In this document: positions 8,289-42,748 of the stretch, piece after piece | Numbering within the stretch: position 1 is the stretch's first letter | How the letters are laid out: every line of letters starts with the position of its first letter | DNA from: Pseudomonas baetica | Lineage (GTDB): Bacteria > Pseudomonadota > Gammaproteobacteria > Pseudomonadales > Pseudomonadaceae | Assembly (NCBI RefSeq): GCF_002813455.1 | Contig: NZ_PHHE01000001.1 | Span: 3,337,001-3,401,000, forward strand | Reading direction: 5' to 3' | Length of the DNA: 64,000 nucleotides | Notes under the pieces: generated by a model | Told to the model about the DNA's origin: nothing | What the model saw: only the letters and a program-made list of their open reading frames with translations | Database searches by the model: none | Made by a program: the position numbers and the translations under genes

Positions 8289-10075
8289 ACGGCAAGCGCC
8301 ATATAAAACTGCGTCCCCTGCCCCGGCCGCGAATAAACACCCATCCGCCCACCATGCAGCTGGACGATTTCTTTGCACAGTGCCAAGCCAAGCCCCGCGC
8401 CGCCCTTCTTGCGTCCGACCTGCACAAACGGCTCGAAAATCCGCCCTTGCTGGCCATAAGCAATGCCTTCGCCGTTGTCTTCGACGCTGATGATCACACG
8501 CTCGCCATGGCGACGCGCCTGCAAGCGGATCTGACCGTCGCGGGCGGTATGACGCAGGGCGTTGTCGATCAGGTTGTCGAGCACCCGCTCCAATTGCGCC
8601 TGGTCCGCCTGCAAGCGCGGTAGCGGCCCCTGCACTTCTACCGTCAAGGCGATGCCCTTCTCGGCCGCCGCATCGGCAAAGCGCGATTGTGCCTGCTCCA
8701 GTAAGTCCTCGATGGAACACGGCGCCAGTGTCAGCTTCTGCAAGCCGTTTTGGTAACGTGAAAAGTTGAGCAAGTCGTTGATCAGCTGCATCAGGCGCTG
8801 CATTTCTTCGTTCACGGTGTCGAGCAAGTCAGCCTCGCGGGAGTCCGCTGGAAACTTTGCCCGCTCACGGAACAGGCCGAACGCCATGTGCATGCCGGTG
8901 ACCGGCGTGCGCAGCTCATGGGAGGCCCGTAGCACGAACTCGCTGCGGACCCGCTCGAAGGCTCGCTGTTCGGTGACGTCGTGCAGCACCATCACCGCGC
9001 CAAGGATATGCCCCTGGGTGTGGCTGACCGGGGTCAGGCTGTAAGTCAGCAGGCGTGATTCGCCGTCGACTTCGATGCTCAAATCCTCCGGCGCCCGCTC
9101 CAGAGTGCCGCCGCGCAACACCAGTTGCAGTTGCGCATCCAGTTCCGGCCGCCCGAGCGCGCAGCCAAGGCCTTGGCCGAGACGATCATCTTCCCAACCC
9201 AGCTGGCGCTGCGCGACCGGGTTGAGGTGTTCCAGATGGCCCTGACGATCAATCATCAGCAGGCCGTCGTCGATGCTGTCGAGCACGGCCTGCAAGCGTT
9301 GCTGCCCGGCCAGCAGCTCATCGATGTTGGTCGCCTGATGCTCGCGCAGCGCTTCGGCCATCAGCCCGAAACGCTTGGTCAGCAGGTTCATTTCCATCGC
9401 AGAAGAAATTGGCAGCGTCACTTCAAAATTGCCTTGGCCGATATTGTCCGCCGCCCGCGCAAGCGCCTCGATCGGTGCGCCAAAACGCCGGGCAATGCCT
9501 TGGGCCGTGACAAACCCGATGATCAACACCGCCAACCCCACCAGTCCAAGCAGGCCAGCGATCAGCAGCGCCCGGTTGCGCGTATCACGCTGGACTGCGT
9601 TGATGTTGTCCAGCGCATGCTTGTGCTCGGCGATCAGTCCGTTGCGTAACGTATTGAAGCGATCGCGGAAGTCCGCATTGCTCATCATCGTCTTGGCCGG
9701 GTCATGGGACAGATCGAACGCATTCAGGAAGCTCAGGTAATCCGCCTTGGCCCGACTGAAACCGTACAGTCGACCATCACCCGCCTGCTCCTGCGCGATG
9801 CCTTCGTCGAGTAACTGGAAGTAATGCTGTTTAGACGCTTCGAACGCGACGGGATCAGGCTTTTCCGCCAGCATGATGATCAGTTGATCACCCAGCGTCT
9901 GCCGCAGCTTGAGACCCAGATCAAGGGTGGCGAAGTTGCTGCGTACCCGATCTTCCTGGGTTCCGGCCATCTGCATCACACTGACCAACCCGAGCAACAG
10001 CCCGAGCAAGGCCACCGTGATCAGTGCGGAAATACTCAGGAACAACCGGGTCCGCAACTTCATAGCCAGTTTCAT
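8285..10075 (-). CDS. kinB: sensor histidine kinase KinB
   Basis: Inner-membrane two-component kinase paired with AlgB, 596 aa (P. aeruginosa KinB is 595). It starts at MKLAMKLRTRL; the frame is open further upstream but would overlap algB. TM1 is near residues 10-35, a periplasmic helical sensor domain follows to about 165, TM2 is near 165-190, then HAMP, PAS (about 255-360) and the HisKA domain with SHELRTP (phosphorylated His near 385). The HATPase domain shows DNLIDNALRHT and a GLGLAL box. KinB acts mainly as a phosphatase of AlgB in alginate and virulence control. It lies 10 bases downstream of algB, so one operon. Confidence 0.93.
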   Translation of the reverse strand: MKLAMKLRTRLFLSISALITVALLGLLLGLVSVMQMAGTQEDRVRSNFATLDLGLKLRQTLGDQLIIMLAEKPDPVAFEASKQHYFQLLDEGIAQEQAGDGRLYGFSRAKADYLSFLNAFDLSHDPAKTMMSNADFRDRFNTLRNGLIAEHKHALDNINAVQRDTRNRALLIAGLLGLVGLAVLIIGFVTAQGIARRFGAPIEALARAADNIGQGNFEVTLPISSAMEMNLLTKRFGLMAEALREHQATNIDELLAGQQRLQAVLDSIDDGLLMIDRQGHLEHLNPVAQRQLGWEDDRLGQGLGCALGRPELDAQLQLVLRGGTLERAPEDLSIEVDGESRLLTYSLTPVSHTQGHILGAVMVLHDVTEQRAFERVRSEFVLRASHELRTPVTGMHMAFGLFRERAKFPADSREADLLDTVNEEMQRLMQLINDLLNFSRYQNGLQKLTLAPCSIEDLLEQAQSRFADAAAEKGIALTVEVQGPLPRLQADQAQLERVLDNLIDNALRHTARDGQIRLQARRHGERVIISVEDNGEGIAYGQQGRIFEPFVQVGRKKGGAGLGLALCKEIVQLHGGRMGVYSRPGQGTQFYMALAV

Positions 10076-35826: not shown

Positions 35827-36804
35827 ATGGCAAAGCGTATCCAGTTCCGCGCCCACGGCGGTCCCGAAGTGCTCGAATATGTTGACTACTCACCGGCGGC
35901 ACCCGGCCCCAATCAGGTACGGGTCGCCAACAAGGCGATCGGCCTGAATTTCATCGACACCTACTACCGCAGCGGCCTCTATGCACCGCCTGCTTTGCCA
36001 TCTGGTCTGGGCGCGGAAGGCGCGGGCATCGTCGACGCGGTGGGCAGCGAAGTCACCCGGTTCAAGGTGGGTGATCGCGTCGCTTACGGCAGCGGCCCGC
36101 TGGGCGCCTACAGTCAATTGCACGTCTTGCCTGAAGCCAATCTGGTGCATCTGCCGGACGCCATCAGCTTCGAGACGGCTGCCGGGGTGATGCTCAAGGG
36201 CCTGACCGTGCAGTATCTGCTGCGCCAGACCTATGAACTCAAGGGCGGCGAAACCATTCTGTTCCACGCCGCTGCCGGGGGCGTCGGTTCGCTGGCCTGC
36301 CAATGGGCCAAGGCATTGGGTGTGAACCTGATCGGCACCGTCAGTTCGAAAGAAAAGGCCGAACTGGCCAAGGCCAACGGCGCTTGGGCGACCATCGATT
36401 ACAGCCACGAAAATGTTGCTGAACGCGTGCTCGAACTGACCGACGGCAAGAAAGTCCCGGTGGTCTACGACGGCGTTGGCAAGGACACCTGGCTGACTTC
36501 GCTGGACAGCGTGTCGCCGCGTGGTCTGATGGTCAGCTTCGGCAATGCGTCCGGTGCAGTGGACGGGGTCAATCTGGGTATTCTCGCCGCCAAGGGCTCG
36601 CTGTACGTGACCCGGCCGACCCTGGCGACCTACGCCAACAACGCCGAAAACCTTCAGCGAATGGCCGATGAGCTGTTCGAGATGATCATCAGCGGCAAGC
36701 TCAAGGTAGACATCAGCCAGCGTTATCCGCTGGCCGATGCGGCGAAGGCACAGACCGAGCTTTCGGCTCGGCGGACTACCGGCTCCACCATCCTGCAGCC
36801 CTGA
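35827..36804 (+). CDS. qor: NADPH:quinone oxidoreductase Qor
   Basis: Zinc-independent medium-chain reductase, 325 aa, cytosolic. The N-terminal GroES-like domain carries YYRSGLY and GAEGAGIVDAVG. The Rossmann domain shows HAAAGGVGSLACQWAKALG near 148, binding NADPH. It reduces quinones by one-electron transfer and may limit oxidative stress. It is divergent from hemF. In P. aeruginosa qor sits directly beside tsaC; here five other genes separate them. Confidence 0.94.
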   Translation: MAKRIQFRAHGGPEVLEYVDYSPAAPGPNQVRVANKAIGLNFIDTYYRSGLYAPPALPSGLGAEGAGIVDAVGSEVTRFKVGDRVAYGSGPLGAYSQLHVLPEANLVHLPDAISFETAAGVMLKGLTVQYLLRQTYELKGGETILFHAAAGGVGSLACQWAKALGVNLIGTVSSKEKAELAKANGAWATIDYSHENVAERVLELTDGKKVPVVYDGVGKDTWLTSLDSVSPRGLMVSFGNASGAVDGVNLGILAAKGSLYVTRPTLATYANNAENLQRMADELFEMIISGKLKVDISQRYPLADAAKAQTELSARRTTGSTILQP

Positions 36805-36835: not shown

Positions 36836-38145
36836 TCATAGGGGGGCGCCCAACTCGAAAAAAAACGGCGTCTTGCCGGCCAGGGTTGTTTCAAACTCAT
36901 GCCGTTCAAGGCGCTGCACCTGCAAACCCAGGACTCCGGGCAACCTGAGCAATGCGCAGGCCTGCTTATCTCTTTGCAGTTCCCGCTCGATGGCGCTTTC
37001 TGCGCCGGCAGGCAACTTGTCCCGGGCGATGACCACAAGCAGGCGGGCACCGCCAGCCTGTCTCTCAATCTGCATCTGCAGATCGACAGCATGCAGATCG
37101 GGCAACGCTTGCCTGAGTACGCCGAGAACCTGCCGCTGAGTAATGATCGCGCCGCCCAGCTTGATCGAAGTCTCGACTCGTCCTTCCAGTTCGAGCACGG
37201 GGAACGGGCTGCCACAAGCGCAATTCGACCCTTGCCGCAGGATCCGCCCCCCCGATCACCAATCCGATAACGTAACAGCGGCACATGATCGGGTAGCAGG
37301 GGCGTCAACAGAAACTCGCCAGCCTCACCTTCGGCCACGGCTTGCAGGGTCAGCGGATCAACCACTTCAAGCAGCATTGCGTCGGCATGCAGATGATAGA
37401 AACCGTGCTCAAGGTGTTGGCACTGATAGCCAATGGGACCGGTCTCCGTCGAGCTGTAACCCAGCGACCGAATCTTGATGGCCGGCCAGTCCCTGGCCAA
37501 TTGCTCACGCAGCTGTTTACTGCAGGGTTCCCCGATGTAGTAGAGCCATCTCAGACTGGCCAACTGCTCGACGTCGATGTCTTGATGGTTAAACAGCGCC
37601 GCGGCAAATGACGGCGTGCAGATCAGCGCATCGACGGTTTGTGCATGAATCAGCTCGGCAATCCTCACAAGCCCCATCAGTGAACCGGCAGGCAACAAGC
37701 GGGCGCCAATACGCTCGACGAGCGCTGCCGCGTATTGAAAGGCCCCCTGCATTTCGCCGGCGGTCAGGCAATTGATGACAACTGCAGGACGCTCATCTGC
37801 GGTGCCAAACACCCGCGCGCCGAGCGACACGATACGGGCGTTGAACGCCCAGGAGTGGGTAATGTGTTTGCGCTGCCCGGTGCTACCTCCCGACGTCAGG
37901 GTCAGCCCACCGCCAGGCGCACAGTGGGAGGCCTGGGCCATTGCGCAAAACAACACACCGCCCAGATCGTCCTCTACCGCCTGCATCGGCAGTCGATGTA
38001 AATCTTGTGGACTCTGTACGTGGAGGATTTGCGGGCAAAGTGCGCGAAACCAGGGCAAAGAACGCGCATAAGCCAGTTGCCGGGCAAGGGCTTCACTCAC
38101 TGTCAGGGGATCCCAGTCTGCAACCGCGCGGATTTCATCGTTCAT
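36836..38145 (-). pseudogene. PaaK-like acyl-CoA ligase (AMP-forming), frame broken at a C7 tract
   Basis: Adenylate-forming CoA ligase of the short PaaK type. The first about 298 residues (from MNDEIRAV, Shine-Dalgarno AGGGAGG 8 bases away) contain LTSGGSTGQRKH (phosphate loop), YSSTETGPIG and LLRYRIGDRGG. The frame then shifts; the C-terminal domain (LELEGRVETSIKLGGAIITQRQV...) continues in another frame to the stop at 36836. Adding one base to the run of seven C (37247-37253, G on the coding strand) restores a 436-residue protein of normal length. Possible causes are phase variation, recent inactivation or a sequencing error. The start overlaps the oxoamine synthase gene by 11 bases. The substrate (fatty or aromatic acid) is unknown. 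Confidence 0.82.
37247..37253. repeat. homopolymer C7 at the ligase frameshift
   Basis: Seven consecutive C on the plus strand. Eight would join the two halves of the acyl-CoA ligase exactly. Confidence 0.85.
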
Positions 38146-39403
38146 CGCCATGTCCTCCCTGACGAATGCCCAACTCATCGAAGCCGCCACTGATGGCACT
38201 GGCCAGTCGTTGTAGCTGGTCCTGGCCATGATTCGCGCTGATGGCCAGACGCAAAATCGCCTCACCTTTAGCCACCACCGGAAACAGTGCGGTGGTCACC
38301 GCGAAAGCCTCTCGACGCAGGTGCAGCGCCAGACGGATCGCATCTCGTTCGCCCCCGACGCGGACGAAACGAATAGGCGAGGCGACTTCATGATTGCCTA
38401 GCACCGGTCCGAGCAGACCGTCGATCAGCGCCAAATTTCCCCACAGGGCCGCCTGCAATTGCCCAAGCTCCGGCGAAAGGTGGATAGCCCCCGAGGCGAC
38501 CGCCGCGCCAACACCGCCCATCGACAGAGGCCCGCCGAAGGTATAGGTCGACGCATGGCGTCGTATCAGTTCTGCATCAGCGGCCGAAAGCACGGTGATC
38601 GCTCCTCCGGTTGCCCCGAACGCCTTGGACAGCGATGACAGGAGGATCAGGCGATGCCGCAGTCGATCATCGGCCGCCGTCAGGGCGTAACCGCCCCCGG
38701 CCACGCCATGGATCGAGGTGCCATGGGCGTCATCCGCATACAAATATCCTTCGAAGCGTTCTGCCAGTTGCAGCAAGCGGTTGACCGGATACAGACCGCG
38801 CATTGAACCGATGCTGTCGGTGAGGATGATCGGCGTATTGCCAGCCGCTGCGGCTGTCGAACACAACTGCTCGACTTGTTGCACATCGCTGCAATCACAC
38901 CTTTGTACAGTGCCGAATTGCCACAGAATACCTTGCAGCACTTGCATCGAGGCATGGGCAGCCCGATCAACGATCCAGCAGGGACCACGACGCAAGGGGT
39001 AGGACGGCAGCTCACCGGATCCCAACAGCGGCAGACATCCCAGATGCGCGCTGCCCACCGAGTTGAAGGTGACGGTATGCCCCTGAAATATCTGGCTCAA
39101 TTGCTCATCCAATGCACGCATCGGCGGCAGAAGTGCCCGGGTACGCGCTGCGGCGAATTGCACACCGAAGCACTCCACTGCATCCACCGCCCCCTGAATC
39201 AGGCGCGGGTCGCACTCCAGCCCGAGATATGAGCATGAGAGAAACTCGGTCAGTCGCTCGCCGTTGCTCAACTCGATGTCCTTGCCCTCGCGCCGCACCA
39301 GCTCCAGGCCATTGAGCCCGGCATCGAACAACTGCTGCTGATCGTCGCGCGCCTGGCGGACACGATTTTTCAACCAATTGACAGTCGGTTGCTGAGTGTT
39401 CAT
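38135..39403 (-). CDS. alpha-oxoamine synthase (class II PLP aminotransferase; BioF/Kbl/CqsA-like)
   Basis: 422 aa. PLP-dependent enzymes of this family condense an amino acid (or SAM) with an acyl-CoA, releasing CO2 to give an aminoketone. Seen are CSYLGLECDP near residue 50, the PLP aspartate in YADDAHGTS near 225 and the Schiff-base lysine in LLSSLSKAFGATGG near 258. Starting at MNTQQPTV makes the start overlap the previous stop as ATGA; the upstream open frame has no similarity. The neighbouring CoA ligase could supply its acyl-CoA. Biotin synthesis is unlikely because no bio genes are near. Confidence 0.85.
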   Translation of the reverse strand: MNTQQPTVNWLKNRVRQARDDQQQLFDAGLNGLELVRREGKDIELSNGERLTEFLSCSYLGLECDPRLIQGAVDAVECFGVQFAAARTRALLPPMRALDEQLSQIFQGHTVTFNSVGSAHLGCLPLLGSGELPSYPLRRGPCWIVDRAAHASMQVLQGILWQFGTVQRCDCSDVQQVEQLCSTAAAAGNTPIILTDSIGSMRGLYPVNRLLQLAERFEGYLYADDAHGTSIHGVAGGGYALTAADDRLRHRLILLSSLSKAFGATGGAITVLSAADAELIRRHASTYTFGGPLSMGGVGAAVASGAIHLSPELGQLQAALWGNLALIDGLLGPVLGNHEVASPIRFVRVGGERDAIRLALHLRREAFAVTTALFPVVAKGEAILRLAISANHGQDQLQRLASAISGGFDELGIRQGGHGDER

Positions 39404-40494
39404 CGAGATACCTGCGAAGTTGTCGTCCGGCGATAGACCTGTACACGCCAGAGCTGGGTTTTTTCGCGTGCGATAGCGGCCTGGTGATCGCCGCTGACAT
39501 CGCAGAAGCCTGCACAATCGGGCTGGATAACATGCAAATGTCCGCGTATGACCGTCAAAGCGTTCTCCGCCATGGACGGACGCAGTCGCTGCAAGACAGC
39601 GGCACCCGCGACGTCGGGCAAAAAGGAAGGCACGTCCGAGAGCGAGACGAAATCGACGTTTCTGTGCATGGCCACGCAGTCGAGAATGTCTGCCTGCACT
39701 ACCCGCATCTCGCACTGTTGTTGTGCCTCACAGGCACGCTTGAAAATCTTCGGATCGCACTCCAGCGGGAAGCCCTGGGGATAGCGCAACTCACCGAAAA
39801 ACAGCATTTGCAGGAAGAAACTCTTGCGCACGATTTGCGTAGTGAACAAGGCATGGAAAATCTGTAGATACGCATCCCTGGTACTGATACCGAGGTTGTT
39901 GGCTGGAAAAGCACCTTTGTAGAGCAGCGAATTGAGCACAGCTGCATTGCCAAGCAACGCAATCACCGCCCTCCAGCGTTTGCGGGGAAAGCGGGTTCGG
40001 TAATAATCCGTTTGCTCGCCGAGGTGGCTGTACTGAAAAATTGCTCGACCGGCCTGGCCGGTAAACAGTCCATTGATTTTCGCCAACCGCTGCAGCGTCC
40101 GTTCAAAAGCCCCCATGTAAATCGGTGCTTGCCAGCGCCGCGCCTGAAACAGGTCTGCCAACCAGCGGCGATCTTCCCGCGGCAGATCCAGGTGTTGAAA
40201 GATGGCTTGCCGTCGTGTCGTCAACGTCCCCGTCCGATACCCCATAAAGTCCATGAACGACTCGTGATCGGTCTGTTTCAGCAGGGCAAAGCGCAACCGC
40301 GTAAACGCCAGTTGCGGCGCACTGATATCGGCGCAGGTCATTCTTGCCGGTTTACGGGCCAGCAGTGGCAAAAGCCTTCCACCACTCCCTGCGACCCCCA
40401 CAACATGCCCGGCACGCTTGGGCAGGATCGCGTATTCAAGCGCCGCGTCTTCATCTCCCAGCGCGTAATTCAAACGCTCGAAATAGTCAGCCAT
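39400..40494 (-). CDS. DUF3419 / BtaA-like SAM-dependent 3-amino-3-carboxypropyl transferase
   Basis: 364 aa. It has the pattern of BtaA, which moves the aminobutyrate group of SAM onto diacylglycerol: FERLNYALGDEDAALEYAIL at the N-terminus, a SAM loop VAGSGGR near 33-40, CADIS near 54, a long helical middle and VSLSDVPSFLP near 280. There is no partner btaB here for betaine-lipid methylation, so the acceptor is probably a small molecule (inference). It overlaps the oxoamine synthase by 4 bases and lies 42 bases after the di-iron enzyme gene. Confidence 0.75.
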   Translation of the reverse strand: MADYFERLNYALGDEDAALEYAILPKRAGHVVGVAGSGGRLLPLLARKPARMTCADISAPQLAFTRLRFALLKQTDHESFMDFMGYRTGTLTTRRQAIFQHLDLPREDRRWLADLFQARRWQAPIYMGAFERTLQRLAKINGLFTGQAGRAIFQYSHLGEQTDYYRTRFPRKRWRAVIALLGNAAVLNSLLYKGAFPANNLGISTRDAYLQIFHALFTTQIVRKSFFLQMLFFGELRYPQGFPLECDPKIFKRACEAQQQCEMRVVQADILDCVAMHRNVDFVSLSDVPSFLPDVAGAAVLQRLRPSMAENALTVIRGHLHVIQPDCAGFCDVSGDHQAAIAREKTQLWRVQVYRRTTTSQVSR

Positions 40495-40536
40495 GCCTGC
40501 CTCCGTCCACCAAACCTGAAAATCGACGTGATGGCT

Positions 40537-41271
40537 TCATGATTTATCCAGGGCGTGAAGGAAGTCGTAGCGGGGCGCGAGGCCGTTTTGCCAAGACTCA
40601 TACTGTTCGTAAACGGCCTCAAGCATGTCGCCGGTCAGGCGCAAGCTGGTTTCCATCACCGTGTTAATGGCCTCCCAGTCGGCTTGACACTTACATGTGC
40701 GGCGCAGAATGAGCTTGATTTCATTGAAGTGTTCTATATCGATATCCGAGTGAGCGATAAAGAACGTCAGCTGGGCGGTGCTTAGTGCAAGTATTTCGCT
40801 TAGTTTACTGATGAGTGGCGTGATGAACTGGTAGGCGTTTTCTGCCCAGTAACTGTATCCAAGCCGTTGCAGCGGATTACCAGTAAAGGATATCCAGTAC
40901 AAATAAGCGATCAGTACTTCGGTTTCCGGTAACGCTGGAGGAATATCAAACAGCTCATTTTTCAAGCCAAGACTCATGACATCGTGCAAGGCCATTTTTT
41001 CATGCCCTACTTCTTGCGCCGCATGTTCAAAACAGAATTTTGCATAGACCGGATTATCGGCATGGCGCACACCCACCAATCCCTGATTGCGTGCATTGTG
41101 CGCGGTGTAGTGAAAGGTTTCGATCATGTAGATTGCATACAGCGCTTTGGAAACAGTCCCTTCGCGTATGGCTTTTACCAAGCGCGAGTTATCGAGAATA
41201 TCGGACCAGGTCTTTTCGATGCGTTGATCAAGCAGGCTCAATTGTTGTTCAAAACTGACGGGCGCATTCAT
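40537..41271 (-). CDS. haem-oxygenase-like di-iron enzyme (Haem_oxygenas_2/TenA-like fold)
   Basis: 244 aa, all helical, no signal peptide. Spaced metal ligands of the HDO type are visible: a glutamate in YMIETFHYTAHNA near 50, E-x-x-x-H in QEVGHEKMALHD near 92, and D-x-x-x-H in AHSDIDIEHFNEI near 180. Relatives oxidise amines or fatty acids (N-oxygenation, decarboxylation to alkenes, C-C cleavage). The start has GGAG 8 bases upstream and overlaps the acyltransferase gene by 23 bases. The substrate probably comes from neighbouring enzymes; this is inference. Confidence 0.75.
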   Translation of the reverse strand: MNAPVSFEQQLSLLDQRIEKTWSDILDNSRLVKAIREGTVSKALYAIYMIETFHYTAHNARNQGLVGVRHADNPVYAKFCFEHAAQEVGHEKMALHDVMSLGLKNELFDIPPALPETEVLIAYLYWISFTGNPLQRLGYSYWAENAYQFITPLISKLSEILALSTAQLTFFIAHSDIDIEHFNEIKLILRRTCKCQADWEAINTVMETSLRLTGDMLEAVYEQYESWQNGLAPRYDFLHALDKS

Positions 41272-41917
41272 CGTGGTTCTCCAGTGGGTTGGCGGTGGCA
41301 TGAACGGGTTGCTGAACAGCGGCGAGGATTTGCCCCCATTCAGCCGACAGCAACCAGTAGTCGCCGCGTGCACGTTGGTCGAGATGAAGAGCGTCGGCGC
41401 TGATCGGTGTCAGGCCAAAACGCTGAAACAGGCGCCGCTGTGGCGATCTGCAGAGGGCAGTGACGCCTCGATAACCGCGCTGGATCGCCCACTCGGTGGC
41501 AGCTGCCAGGAGTCCGTTGACCCAAACGGGTTGCTGGTTTTGCGAATGCGTGATCAGCCGGCTGAACTCGACATGGCGCGACAGCGCCACGGTAGGCGAC
41601 AAATGCCGTTGCGCCAGCGATGCCCATTCAAAGGGCGATGGGGTCACCCTTAATACCGCCACCAGTTGATCGCATTGATAGAGCAGAAAGTGGGTACTGC
41701 GCGCGGGGATTGCCAGTTTGGTTTCCAGCAACCGGGCTCTGGACGTCAGCATGTAATGTTGCAGTCGAAGGCGAAATTGCCGCCCCATGAATCGATCAGG
41801 TTCTCGTGTGTCGGATCCCGCTTCAAGAATAACAATACGACAATTGTCATGATGACTGTTTACTGTCGCCTGAAGCACCTGCAGATAATCCGTGAGTTGT
41901 AAATCCGTAGTGTCCAT
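41249..41917 (-). CDS. GNAT-fold acyltransferase resembling FeeM / acyl-homoserine-lactone synthases
   Basis: 222 aa and first gene of the cluster. Features: an N-terminal basic segment RFRLRLQHYMLTSRARLLETK, a strand FLLYQCDQLVAVLRVTPS, then VEFSRLIT near 117 (compare the E-x-S-R motif of LuxI-type enzymes), an alpha-helix GLLAAATEWAIQRGYRGVTALC, and LFQRFGLTPIS. LuxI and FeeM enzymes move fatty acyl groups from acyl carrier protein to SAM or an amino acid. No LuxR gene is adjacent. Start ATG has GAGAAGGA 5 bases upstream. It may instead be a plain acetyltransferase. Confidence 0.6.
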   Translation of the reverse strand: MDTTDLQLTDYLQVLQATVNSHHDNCRIVILEAGSDTREPDRFMGRQFRLRLQHYMLTSRARLLETKLAIPARSTHFLLYQCDQLVAVLRVTPSPFEWASLAQRHLSPTVALSRHVEFSRLITHSQNQQPVWVNGLLAAATEWAIQRGYRGVTALCRSPQRRLFQRFGLTPISADALHLDQRARGDYWLLSAEWGQILAAVQQPVHATANPLENHDECARQF

Positions 41918-42134
41918 TCCTTCTCCGCAGACGTTAACTTATCAAAGTTTTCTGAACGCATTGAAAGGATGGATGCTTTTAGAAATACCGCCACTGCGCT
42001 ACTTCTGATAATGACGTGGGAAAAGTTACAGACCTTTATCAATGGGTAACTTATCTGACACACGAAATAGGCAAAACTTAAACAAACCGTTGTAAGTTTA
42101 GAGTTCTATGGAGGATAAATCGCAGACAGAAGTA
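41918..42134. promoter_or_regulatory. AT-rich promoter region of the five-gene cluster
   Basis: TAACTTATC occurs twice in direct orientation (41935-41943, 42047-42055). AAGTTAC (42023-42029) and GTAACTT (42046-42052) form an inverted repeat with a 16-base spacer. The region is clearly more AT-rich than the genes around it. It probably carries the cluster promoter and operator sites; the regulator is unknown. Confidence 0.5.
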
Positions 42135-42190: not shown

Positions 42191-42748
42191 TCAGTCGGGA
42201 CGAATGACCTTACCGGAAGCCAGATCTCGAATGACGCTGGGGTTCTTGCGCCCGCCCAGTTGCCCGCCCAGTACCAGGTCGATTTGTCCCCGGAAGTACT
42301 GCTCGACGCGCAACCGCGTGCGCGCCGCCGGCCGGCCTTGCGGGTTGGCCGATGTCGAAATCAACGGCCCTACCATCGAGCATAAGTCCCGCACCTGCGG
42401 ATGATCGCTGACGCGTAGCGCCACCGTGTCATGCACCCCGGTGACCCATTCCGGCAGCAGATTCTGGTGTGGCACCAGCCAGGTGTTCGGCCCCGGCCAA
42501 GTGCTGGCCATGCGGTCGATCCAGTCTTGCGGGAAGTCTTCGAACAGGAAGTCGAACTGGCGAATGTTGTCGGCGACCAAAATCAGGCCCTTGTCGACCG
42601 AGCGATTCTTGATCGCCAGCAGCCGATCCACCGCTTCTTCGTTCCACGGGTCGCAACCCAGCCCCCAGACGGCTTCGGTTGGATAGGCAATGACCGCCCC
42701 AGCGCGAATCTCTCGTGCGGCTTGTTGCACACGCCAACTGTTAACCAT
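42191..42748 (-). CDS. tsaC: threonylcarbamoyl-AMP synthase TsaC (YrdC/Sua5 domain)
   Basis: Makes threonylcarbamoyl-AMP from threonine, bicarbonate and ATP, the first step of t6A37 tRNA modification. 185 aa, a single YrdC domain. Conserved segments are [18 protein letters not shown] near 17-34, [15 protein letters not shown] near 47, [10 protein letters not shown] near 89 and [13 protein letters not shown] near 141. It lies downstream of dprA on the same strand, as in P. aeruginosa (PA0022). Confidence 0.95.

What the first reader, a model, noticed from the sequence alone, without database searches (positions are those of the whole stretch)
36836..41917. Five-gene accessory cluster centred on SAM aminobutyryl and acyl chemistry
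Between qor and tsaC, which I remember as adjacent in P. aeruginosa (PA0023/PA0022), lie five genes on one strand that overlap or nearly touch: FeeM/LuxI-like acyltransferase, haem-oxygenase-like di-iron enzyme, BtaA-like DUF3419 protein, CqsA/BioF-like alpha-oxoamine synthase and PaaK-like CoA ligase. LuxI-type, BtaA-type and CqsA-type enzymes classically use the 3-amino-3-carboxypropyl part of SAM. A plausible but untested reading is a biosynthetic operon for a small acylated amino-acid or aminoketone (signal, metallophore or lipid). I know of no described pathway with exactly this set.
Basis: partly seen in the sequence, partly recalled or inferred. Interest (0 to 1): 0.88.

Follow-up and report, generated by a model that had tools for sequence, protein, structure and literature searches.

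The report
Accessory Pseudomonas operon for acylated metabolite
A five-gene operon found in some Pseudomonas strains looks like an undescribed pathway for a small acylated amino-acid-type molecule; relatives of its first two genes also sit together in very distant bacteria, sometimes beside regulator genes.

Summary
Five same-strand genes (window 41917→36836) lie between tsaC and qor. DUF3419 (13 of 298 genus genomes) and AOS orthologs (13 of 296) occur in the same 13 genomes, with all five genes in this order at this site; 22 of 30 tsaC loci examined lack them. All five genes show purifying selection, but the window's own CoA ligase is frameshifted. The labels need correcting: the acyltransferase is FeeM-like rather than LuxI, the DUF3419 protein is a clade apart from canonical BtaA (about 19% identity), and the PLP enzyme is AOS subfamily PRK07505, not CqsA. 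The widely conserved unit is FeeM-like + di-iron oxidase (67 of 80 loci, several phyla; 0 of 56 control loci), with DUF3419 in 32 of 80. AOS was seen only in Pseudomonas. A divergent branch lies beside sensor kinases (9 loci) or a LuxR regulator (6). SpeD-like genes and hydrolases with hydrophobic N-termini occur beside some DUF3419 versions. Best reading: an undescribed pathway for an N-acylated, oxidised amino-acid-type metabolite, probably carrying a SAM-derived group; function unproven. In six genomes only the acyltransferase survives at the site, still constrained, so it seems useful alone.

The parts
41249..41917 (-). FeeM-like N-acyltransferase, 222 aa (first gene)
   Evidence: ORF; Pfam FeeM weak, E 0.013; family profile A3 hits AHL synthase 3p2f E 1.3e-7; 15 of 28 family members hit Pfam FeeM at E<=0.01, the window protein not among them
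40537..41271 (-). Haem-oxygenase-like di-iron oxidase (HDO), 244 aa
   Evidence: PF14518/PF03070 above cut-off; 3dde E 3.9e-71; E51, H58, E144, H174, D178, H181 invariant in 20 sequences; that these are the metal ligands is recalled
39400..40494 (-). DUF3419 protein, BtaA-superfamily SAM-dependent transferase, 364 aa
38135..39403 (-). Alpha-oxoamine synthase, NCBIfam PRK07505 subfamily, 422 aa
   Evidence: 399.8 bits against cut-off 342; aligns with KBL 1fc4 across the PLP-Lys region, the DDAHG motif and the C-terminal Arg (residue roles recalled)
36836..38151 (-). PaaK-like AMP-forming CoA ligase, frameshifted near 37250 in this strain
   Evidence: one open frame in 26 of 26 Pseudomonas cluster loci checked, same shift in P0241; intact in P0242
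41915..42060 (-). Conserved leader upstream of feeM (87% mean column identity in 14 loci); possibly promoter/operator
   Evidence: no Rfam match at E<=1, 0 of 24 predicted pairs with double changes, no sigma-70 match
42191..42748 (-). tsaC, flank of the insertion site (gene name recalled)
35827..36804 (+). qor, other flank of the insertion site (gene name recalled)

Best explanation
The operon is an accessory biosynthetic cluster built on a widespread module: a FeeM-like acyltransferase that joins an acyl group to an amino group, and an O2-dependent di-iron HDO that oxidises the amino-acid-type product. Here a BtaA-superfamily enzyme (DUF3419) probably adds a SAM-derived 3-amino-3-carboxypropyl group to an acceptor other than diacylglycerol, and Pseudomonas adds a PaaK-like ligase that activates a carboxylic acid as a CoA thioester and an alpha-oxoamine synthase that condenses an acyl-CoA with an amino acid, losing CO2. 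The product would be a small N-acylated, oxidised amino-acid or aminoketone metabolite. Shown: the genes, their linkage, constraint, invariant HDO positions, conserved PLP-site residues, SAM-transferase fold. Inferred: each substrate, the order of steps, the product and its role. In the window's own strain the ligase step may be lost.
For: The same five genes in 13 of 13 carriers at one site; constraint; a FeeM-like match within 3 kb of the HDO in 67 of 80 loci, in 45 of the 57 loci not used to build the profile (35 of 47 without ten further Pseudomonas cluster loci), in 0 of 56 control loci; DUF3419 within 3 kb in 32 of 80; six expected HDO ligand positions invariant in 20 sequences and kept in 3dde; SAM-transferase fold of DUF3419 and 15 positions shared with canonical BtaA; SpeD-like genes in three DUF3419 loci; PaaK within 3 kb in 21 of 80 loci; a further AMP-binding family within about 7 kb in 13 loci (one member, L096, scanned) and another AMP-binding protein beside the HDO in L086.
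Against: No enzyme was assayed and no product is known. A methyltransferase-type fold does not separate aminocarboxypropyl from methyl transfer. The window's ligase is frameshifted, and a second assembly shows the same shift, so the pathway may be incomplete here. FeeM-like alone persists under constraint in six genomes, so it need not serve the other four. In one search, 12 of 80 loci have no FeeM-like match within 3 kb; three of these (L045, L046 and L092, whose contig begins at the HDO) have DUF3419.
Confidence: 0.43

Rival explanations
1. The operon makes a modified membrane lipid: an N-acyl amino acid with a betaine-lipid-like homoserine head group.
For: DUF3419 is related to BtaA; the Flavobacterium DUF3419 locus L054 has a phospholipid-type acyltransferase and a fatty-acid desaturase; HDO loci of Bdellovibrionota and similar MAGs have desaturase-, hexapeptide- and ferritin-like proteins, some below Pfam cut-offs; a Corallococcus locus has a PF05118 hydroxylase (L047), a family that includes the lipid hydroxylase OlsC (recalled).
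Against: DUF3419 here is a clade separate from canonical BtaA with 16 fixed differences; of the window proteins searched only DUF3419 matched the 29 canonical BtaA loci, which extend about 1.5 kb each side; AOS and PaaK do not fit a lipid head-group pathway; hydrolase genes occur in several loci.
Confidence: 0.2
2. The operon makes a diffusible signal sensed by a receptor encoded elsewhere.
For: In the divergent F4 branch, 9 of 16 loci have a sensor kinase beside the FeeM-like/HDO pair and 6 of 16 a LuxR regulator; the six kinases scanned are hybrid kinases whose best NCBIfam match is LuxN, and the nine have 2-5 hydrophobic N-terminal segments. One P. syringae pv. actinidiae plasmid that I read has LuxR, anthranilate synthase, PaaK, FeeM-like, HDO, flavodoxin, EamA and hydrolase genes; this probably is LuxR solo subgroup G, whose anthranilate synthase operon the authors suggest may make signals (PMC8546723, passages; the equation is mine). 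pvf is a precedent for a di-iron-oxygenase autoinducer cluster (PMC10194917, passages).
Against: The LuxN matches cover only the kinase and receiver part (profile positions from about 452 of 839), lie far below the cut-off (256-272 bits against 1550), and do not touch the LuxN sensor half, so ligand type cannot be inferred. L079's kinase ORF is only 436 aa. Near the window's operon no LuxR match was found, only a partial kinase match about 28 kb away. The receptor-linked loci lack DUF3419. L096 has neither regulator in the stretch held.
Confidence: 0.18
3. An acyl-masked antimetabolite: the acyl chain protects a reactive amino acid until an extracytoplasmic hydrolase removes it.
For: PF00144 serine hydrolases in Deefgea, Trinickia and Zooshikella loci with hydrophobic N-terminal segments, a BLAST relative in Dyadobacter, and a penicillin amidase about 7 kb from the HDO with an RND pump in Aestuariibacter; HDOs often act on amino acids (PMC13185094, part 1 of 6 and passages).
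Against: No hydrolase or exporter in the window's cluster; present in only some loci.
Confidence: 0.1
4. Metallophore pathway of the nicotianamine/opine kind.
For: Aminocarboxypropyl transfer occurs in such metallophores (PMC10491745, passages).
Against: Those use NAS or CntL, which the same review calls not homologous to BtaA; none of the five genes is a dehydrogenase, TonB receptor or exporter.
Confidence: 0.05

Closest known systems
FeeM N-acyl amino acid synthases (PF21926) / LuxI acyl-homoserine-lactone synthases
   Same: Family profile aligns with AHL synthase 3p2f over the E-x-S-R stretch; 15 of 28 relatives match PF21926 at E<=0.01
   Different: Window protein below the FeeM cut-off and without an Autoind_synth match; the LuxI Trp and one Asp (recalled) are not kept in the alignments
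HDO family (UndA, SznF, CADD recalled; MboA); nearest solved relative 3dde, function unknown
   Same: Fold family, and the six expected ligand positions are kept here and in 3dde
   Different: Own subfamily; MboA only weakly similar (profile E 4.7e-5); reaction unknown
BtaA, SAM:diacylglycerol 3-amino-3-carboxypropyltransferase (PF11899)
   Same: PF11899; 15 positions shared, among them E15, D16, G38, D56, D287, R317; SAM-transferase fold
   Different: Separate clade (25 of 25, support 1.0), 18.6% median identity, 16 fixed differences
Alpha-oxoamine synthases BioF/KBL and CqsA
   Same: AOS family; PLP-site residues align with KBL
   Different: PRK07505 subfamily, named only 'hypothetical protein'; far below the CqsA and BioF cut-offs
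LuxR solo subgroup G loci of Pseudomonas (PMC8546723)
   Same: The one plasmid locus read has LuxR and anthranilate synthase beside PaaK, FeeM-like and HDO genes
   Different: It has flavodoxin and EamA genes and no annotated DUF3419 or AOS in the stretch read; the identity with subgroup G is inferred

Membership tests
LuxI AHL synthase | Match to Autoind_synth PF00765 | tested here: not met
   Window protein: none at E<=0.1; 1 of 28 family members, E 0.0015
LuxI AHL synthase | E-x-x-R acyl-synthase motif (recalled) | tested here: met
   HVEFSRL in the window; R120 invariant in 28 sequences, the Glu not in all; aligned to 3p2f
FeeM N-acyl amino acid synthase | PF21926 above gathering score | tested here: inconclusive
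   Window 15.7 bits against 27; 15 of 28 relatives match at E<=0.01
FeeM N-acyl amino acid synthase | Acylation of an amino acid | not testable with these tools
   Needs an assay
HDO di-iron oxidase | Fold family and three-His/three-carboxylate set (recalled) | tested here: met
   PF14518 58.8 bits against 28.9; six positions invariant in 20 sequences; metal binding itself not tested
BtaA | PF11899 above gathering score | tested here: met
   68.6 bits against 28.2
BtaA | Groups with canonical BtaA | tested here: not met
   Cluster type 25 of 25 in one clade apart from 29 canonical, 16 fixed differences
BtaA | Diacylglycerol as acceptor | not testable with these tools
   Needs an assay
CqsA | NCBIfam PRK07179 equivalog score | tested here: not met
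   37.5 bits against 428
AOS subfamily PRK07505 | NCBIfam cut-off | tested here: met
   399.8 bits against 342
PaaK phenylacetate-CoA ligase | NCBIfam PaaK equivalog score | tested here: inconclusive
   45.4 bits against 646, but only the N-terminal 301 aa piece was scanned
Quorum-sensing synthase/receptor system | Receptor gene beside the synthase in the window | tested here: not met
   BLAST with one LuxR and one kinase: no LuxR match, one partial kinase match at 8306-8605

The most novel reading that the evidence does not exclude
The FeeM-like acyltransferase plus HDO is a so far unrecognised class of signal synthase, spread across phyla, that makes oxidised N-acyl amino-acid autoinducers sensed by the adjacent hybrid kinases in Burkholderiales and by anthranilate-synthase-linked LuxR solos in pseudomonads; the window's operon is an elaborated version that adds a SAM-derived group and an aminoketone.
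Probability: 0.18. Interest if true: 0.88.

Novelty: new variant of a known kind. Interest (0 to 1): 0.6.

Why it matters
It joins a LuxI/FeeM-fold acyltransferase, an HDO and a BtaA-superfamily transferase, a set I did not find described in ten full-text searches. A 2023 review mentions BtaA for betaine lipid (PMC10491745, passages), so a non-lipid relative would extend SAM chemistry. The regulator-linked branch gives a testable candidate for what some orphan LuxR solos and sensor kinases detect.

Tried and rejected
CqsA and classical LuxI readings: profile scores reject them. Structured leader: no Rfam match, no compensatory pairs; sigma-70 scan empty. AOS-PaaK as ancestral core: AOS orthologs of 83% identity or more were in the same 13 genus genomes only; a paralogue of about 40% was in nine of 296; in 274 class genomes only the own genome and one other matched at E<=1e-50. 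An identity comparison with canonical BtaA took wrong frames for some loci and was redone. I first took P0241 for an intact ligase from a near-identical strain; one search shows that it follows the window's shifted frame, so that claim was withdrawn, and with it the confidence lowered from 0.45 to 0.43; the signal reading was lowered (0.20 to 0.18) because the LuxN matches leave out the sensor half. Paper searches: listings were cut (20 of 105, 20 of 102, 12 of 62, 3 of 6) and only open-licence PMC is held. Foldseek against PDB did not run; the second look by VIA-align 2 did and lists no BtaA or NAS entry in the 50 rows shown, which proves nothing. The search for related loci kept the best 80 of 126 loci.
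Full report
Observation. The window lies in a single 6.9-Mb contig. One correction: the CoA-ligase frame is broken at a G-run near 37250. The ligase is one open frame in 26 of 26 Pseudomonas cluster loci checked (12 genus loci and 14 named loci, sets that overlap) and in P0242, 98% identical over the N-terminal part. P0241, from a 700-kb contig, follows the window's shifted frame for 429 of 436 residues. So a second assembly shows the shift, and the ligase may really be damaged in this strain.

Linkage and history. The DUF3419 ortholog is in 13 of 298 genus genomes, an AOS of 83% identity or more in 13 of 296, the same genomes; all 13 carry the five genes in the same order between tsaC and qor. 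Of 30 tsaC loci read (loci were given for 30 of 58 genomes with a match, of 59 searched), 6 show feeM and the start of hdo, 2 show only feeM before qor, and 22 have none of the five; in 21 of these 22 qor lies within about 50-300 nt of tsaC, in one about 1.1 kb. feeM orthologs are in 19 of 296 genomes: the 13 plus six in which feeM stands alone at the site. The six show two junction types; none is among the DUF3419 or AOS positives; three have no HDO match and three only a 23-24% relative elsewhere. Within each junction group pairwise feeM dN/dS is 0.03-0.15 (own Nei-Gojobori script), so feeM seems useful alone, provided each group shares one deletion. In 16 full clusters median dN/dS is feeM 0.18, HDO 0.06, DUF3419 0.15, AOS 0.08, ligase N-terminal part 0.12, against 0.04 for tsaC and qor.

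The wider family. An HDO alignment (A1) used on species genomes gave 126 relatives, of which the best 80 loci were kept: 14 Pseudomonas loci with this cluster at the same site and 66 others, by record titles including Lysobacterales, Zooshikella, Aestuariibacter, Trinickia, Paraburkholderia, Ramlibacter, myxobacteria, Bdellovibrionales, Flavobacterium, Dyadobacter, Frankia, Streptomyces and Planctomycetota. A FeeM-like profile finds a match within 3 kb of the HDO in 67 of 80; leaving out the 23 training loci, in 45 of 57; leaving out also ten further Pseudomonas cluster loci, in 35 of 47. It finds nothing in 56 control loci (257 kb; canonical BtaA loci, AOS-paralogue loci and tsaC loci without the cluster). 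With two more neighbour-derived profiles the figure is 68 of 80. DUF3419 is within 3 kb in 32 of 80, AOS in 14 (all the Pseudomonas cluster), PaaK in 21. Some contigs end near the HDO or hold masked bases (L092, L042). In the two homolog lists (best 120 of 238 and of 187 shown), at least 22 contig lengths occur for both HDO and DUF3419 (counted by eye).

Accessory genes, as far as scanned: Asp_Arg_Hydrox in a Corallococcus and the Zooshikella locus, Acetyltransf_6 and FMN_bind_2 in the same Corallococcus locus; acyltransferase and desaturase in Flavobacterium L054; hexapeptide-, ferritin- and desaturase-like proteins in Bdellovibrionales and similar MAG loci, some below cut-off; AdoMet decarboxylase domains in Deefgea, Trinickia and Corallococcus exercitus, each with an ESHCSYHTYPE stretch that resembles the SpeD cleavage site as I recall it; PF00144 hydrolases in Deefgea, Trinickia and Zooshikella with a hydrophobic N-terminal segment; penicillin amidase and RND pump in Aestuariibacter.

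Regulator-linked branch. Sixteen loci carry a divergent FeeM-like type (family F4). Nine, all Burkholderiales by title, have a sensor kinase beside the pair. The six kinases scanned match LuxN best but far below its cut-off (256-272 bits against 1550) and only in the kinase and receiver part, not the sensor half; the nine have 2-5 hydrophobic N-terminal segments by a simple scan. L104, without a FeeM-like match, also has a kinase relative on the other strand. Six Pseudomonas loci have a LuxR regulator, anthranilate synthase, PaaK, a flavodoxin-type reductase and an EamA transporter; one Lysobacter MAG locus (L096) has the PaaK, reductase and synthase without LuxR. A plasmid search with the HDO gave 25 records, 23 of them Pseudomonas, at 34% identity in the rows shown; one of those was read and has this set. 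It probably is LuxR solo subgroup G of PMC8546723 (passages), which I infer from the anthranilate synthase genes.

Interpretation. I commit to a biosynthetic operon for an N-acylated, HDO-oxidised amino-acid-type metabolite with a probable SAM-derived group (0.43); lipid, signal, masked-antimetabolite and metallophore readings are rivals. The SAM theme rests on DUF3419 and on SpeD-like neighbours elsewhere, not on AOS or the acyltransferase. Ten full-text searches of an open-licence library, with cut listings, showed no paper on this gene set; subscription papers were not searched.

Noticed in passing
L138 (G000:C1:6743500-6756500): A second PRK07505-like AOS (about 40% identical) lies among genes that look by eye, not by profile, like an FAD oxidoreductase, a chorismate-mutase-like protein, a fused anthranilate/ADC synthase and an MFS exporter; AOS of this kind in nine of 296 genus genomes, four contexts read.
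   Followed up: partly
L132 4488-13132: A P. syringae pv. actinidiae conjugative plasmid carries LuxR, anthranilate synthase, PaaK, FeeM-like, HDO, flavodoxin, EamA and hydrolase genes; 23 Pseudomonas plasmid records match the HDO.
   Followed up: partly
window 41915-42060: About 145 nt upstream of feeM are strongly conserved in 14 loci, including two feeM-only loci, without covariation.
   Followed up: partly
L181, L187, L188, L189, L190, L191: feeM survives alone at the tsaC-qor site with strong constraint; two junction types.
   Followed up: yes
G000:C1:1532497-1533051 (L136): A distant second HDO (24% identity) in the same genome.
   Followed up: no
L091 13115-13720: A TraI/LuxI-like gene (65.7 bits against a cut-off of 292) lies downstream of the PaaK-FeeM-HDO cluster in two Pseudomonas loci, L091 and L093.
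   Followed up: no
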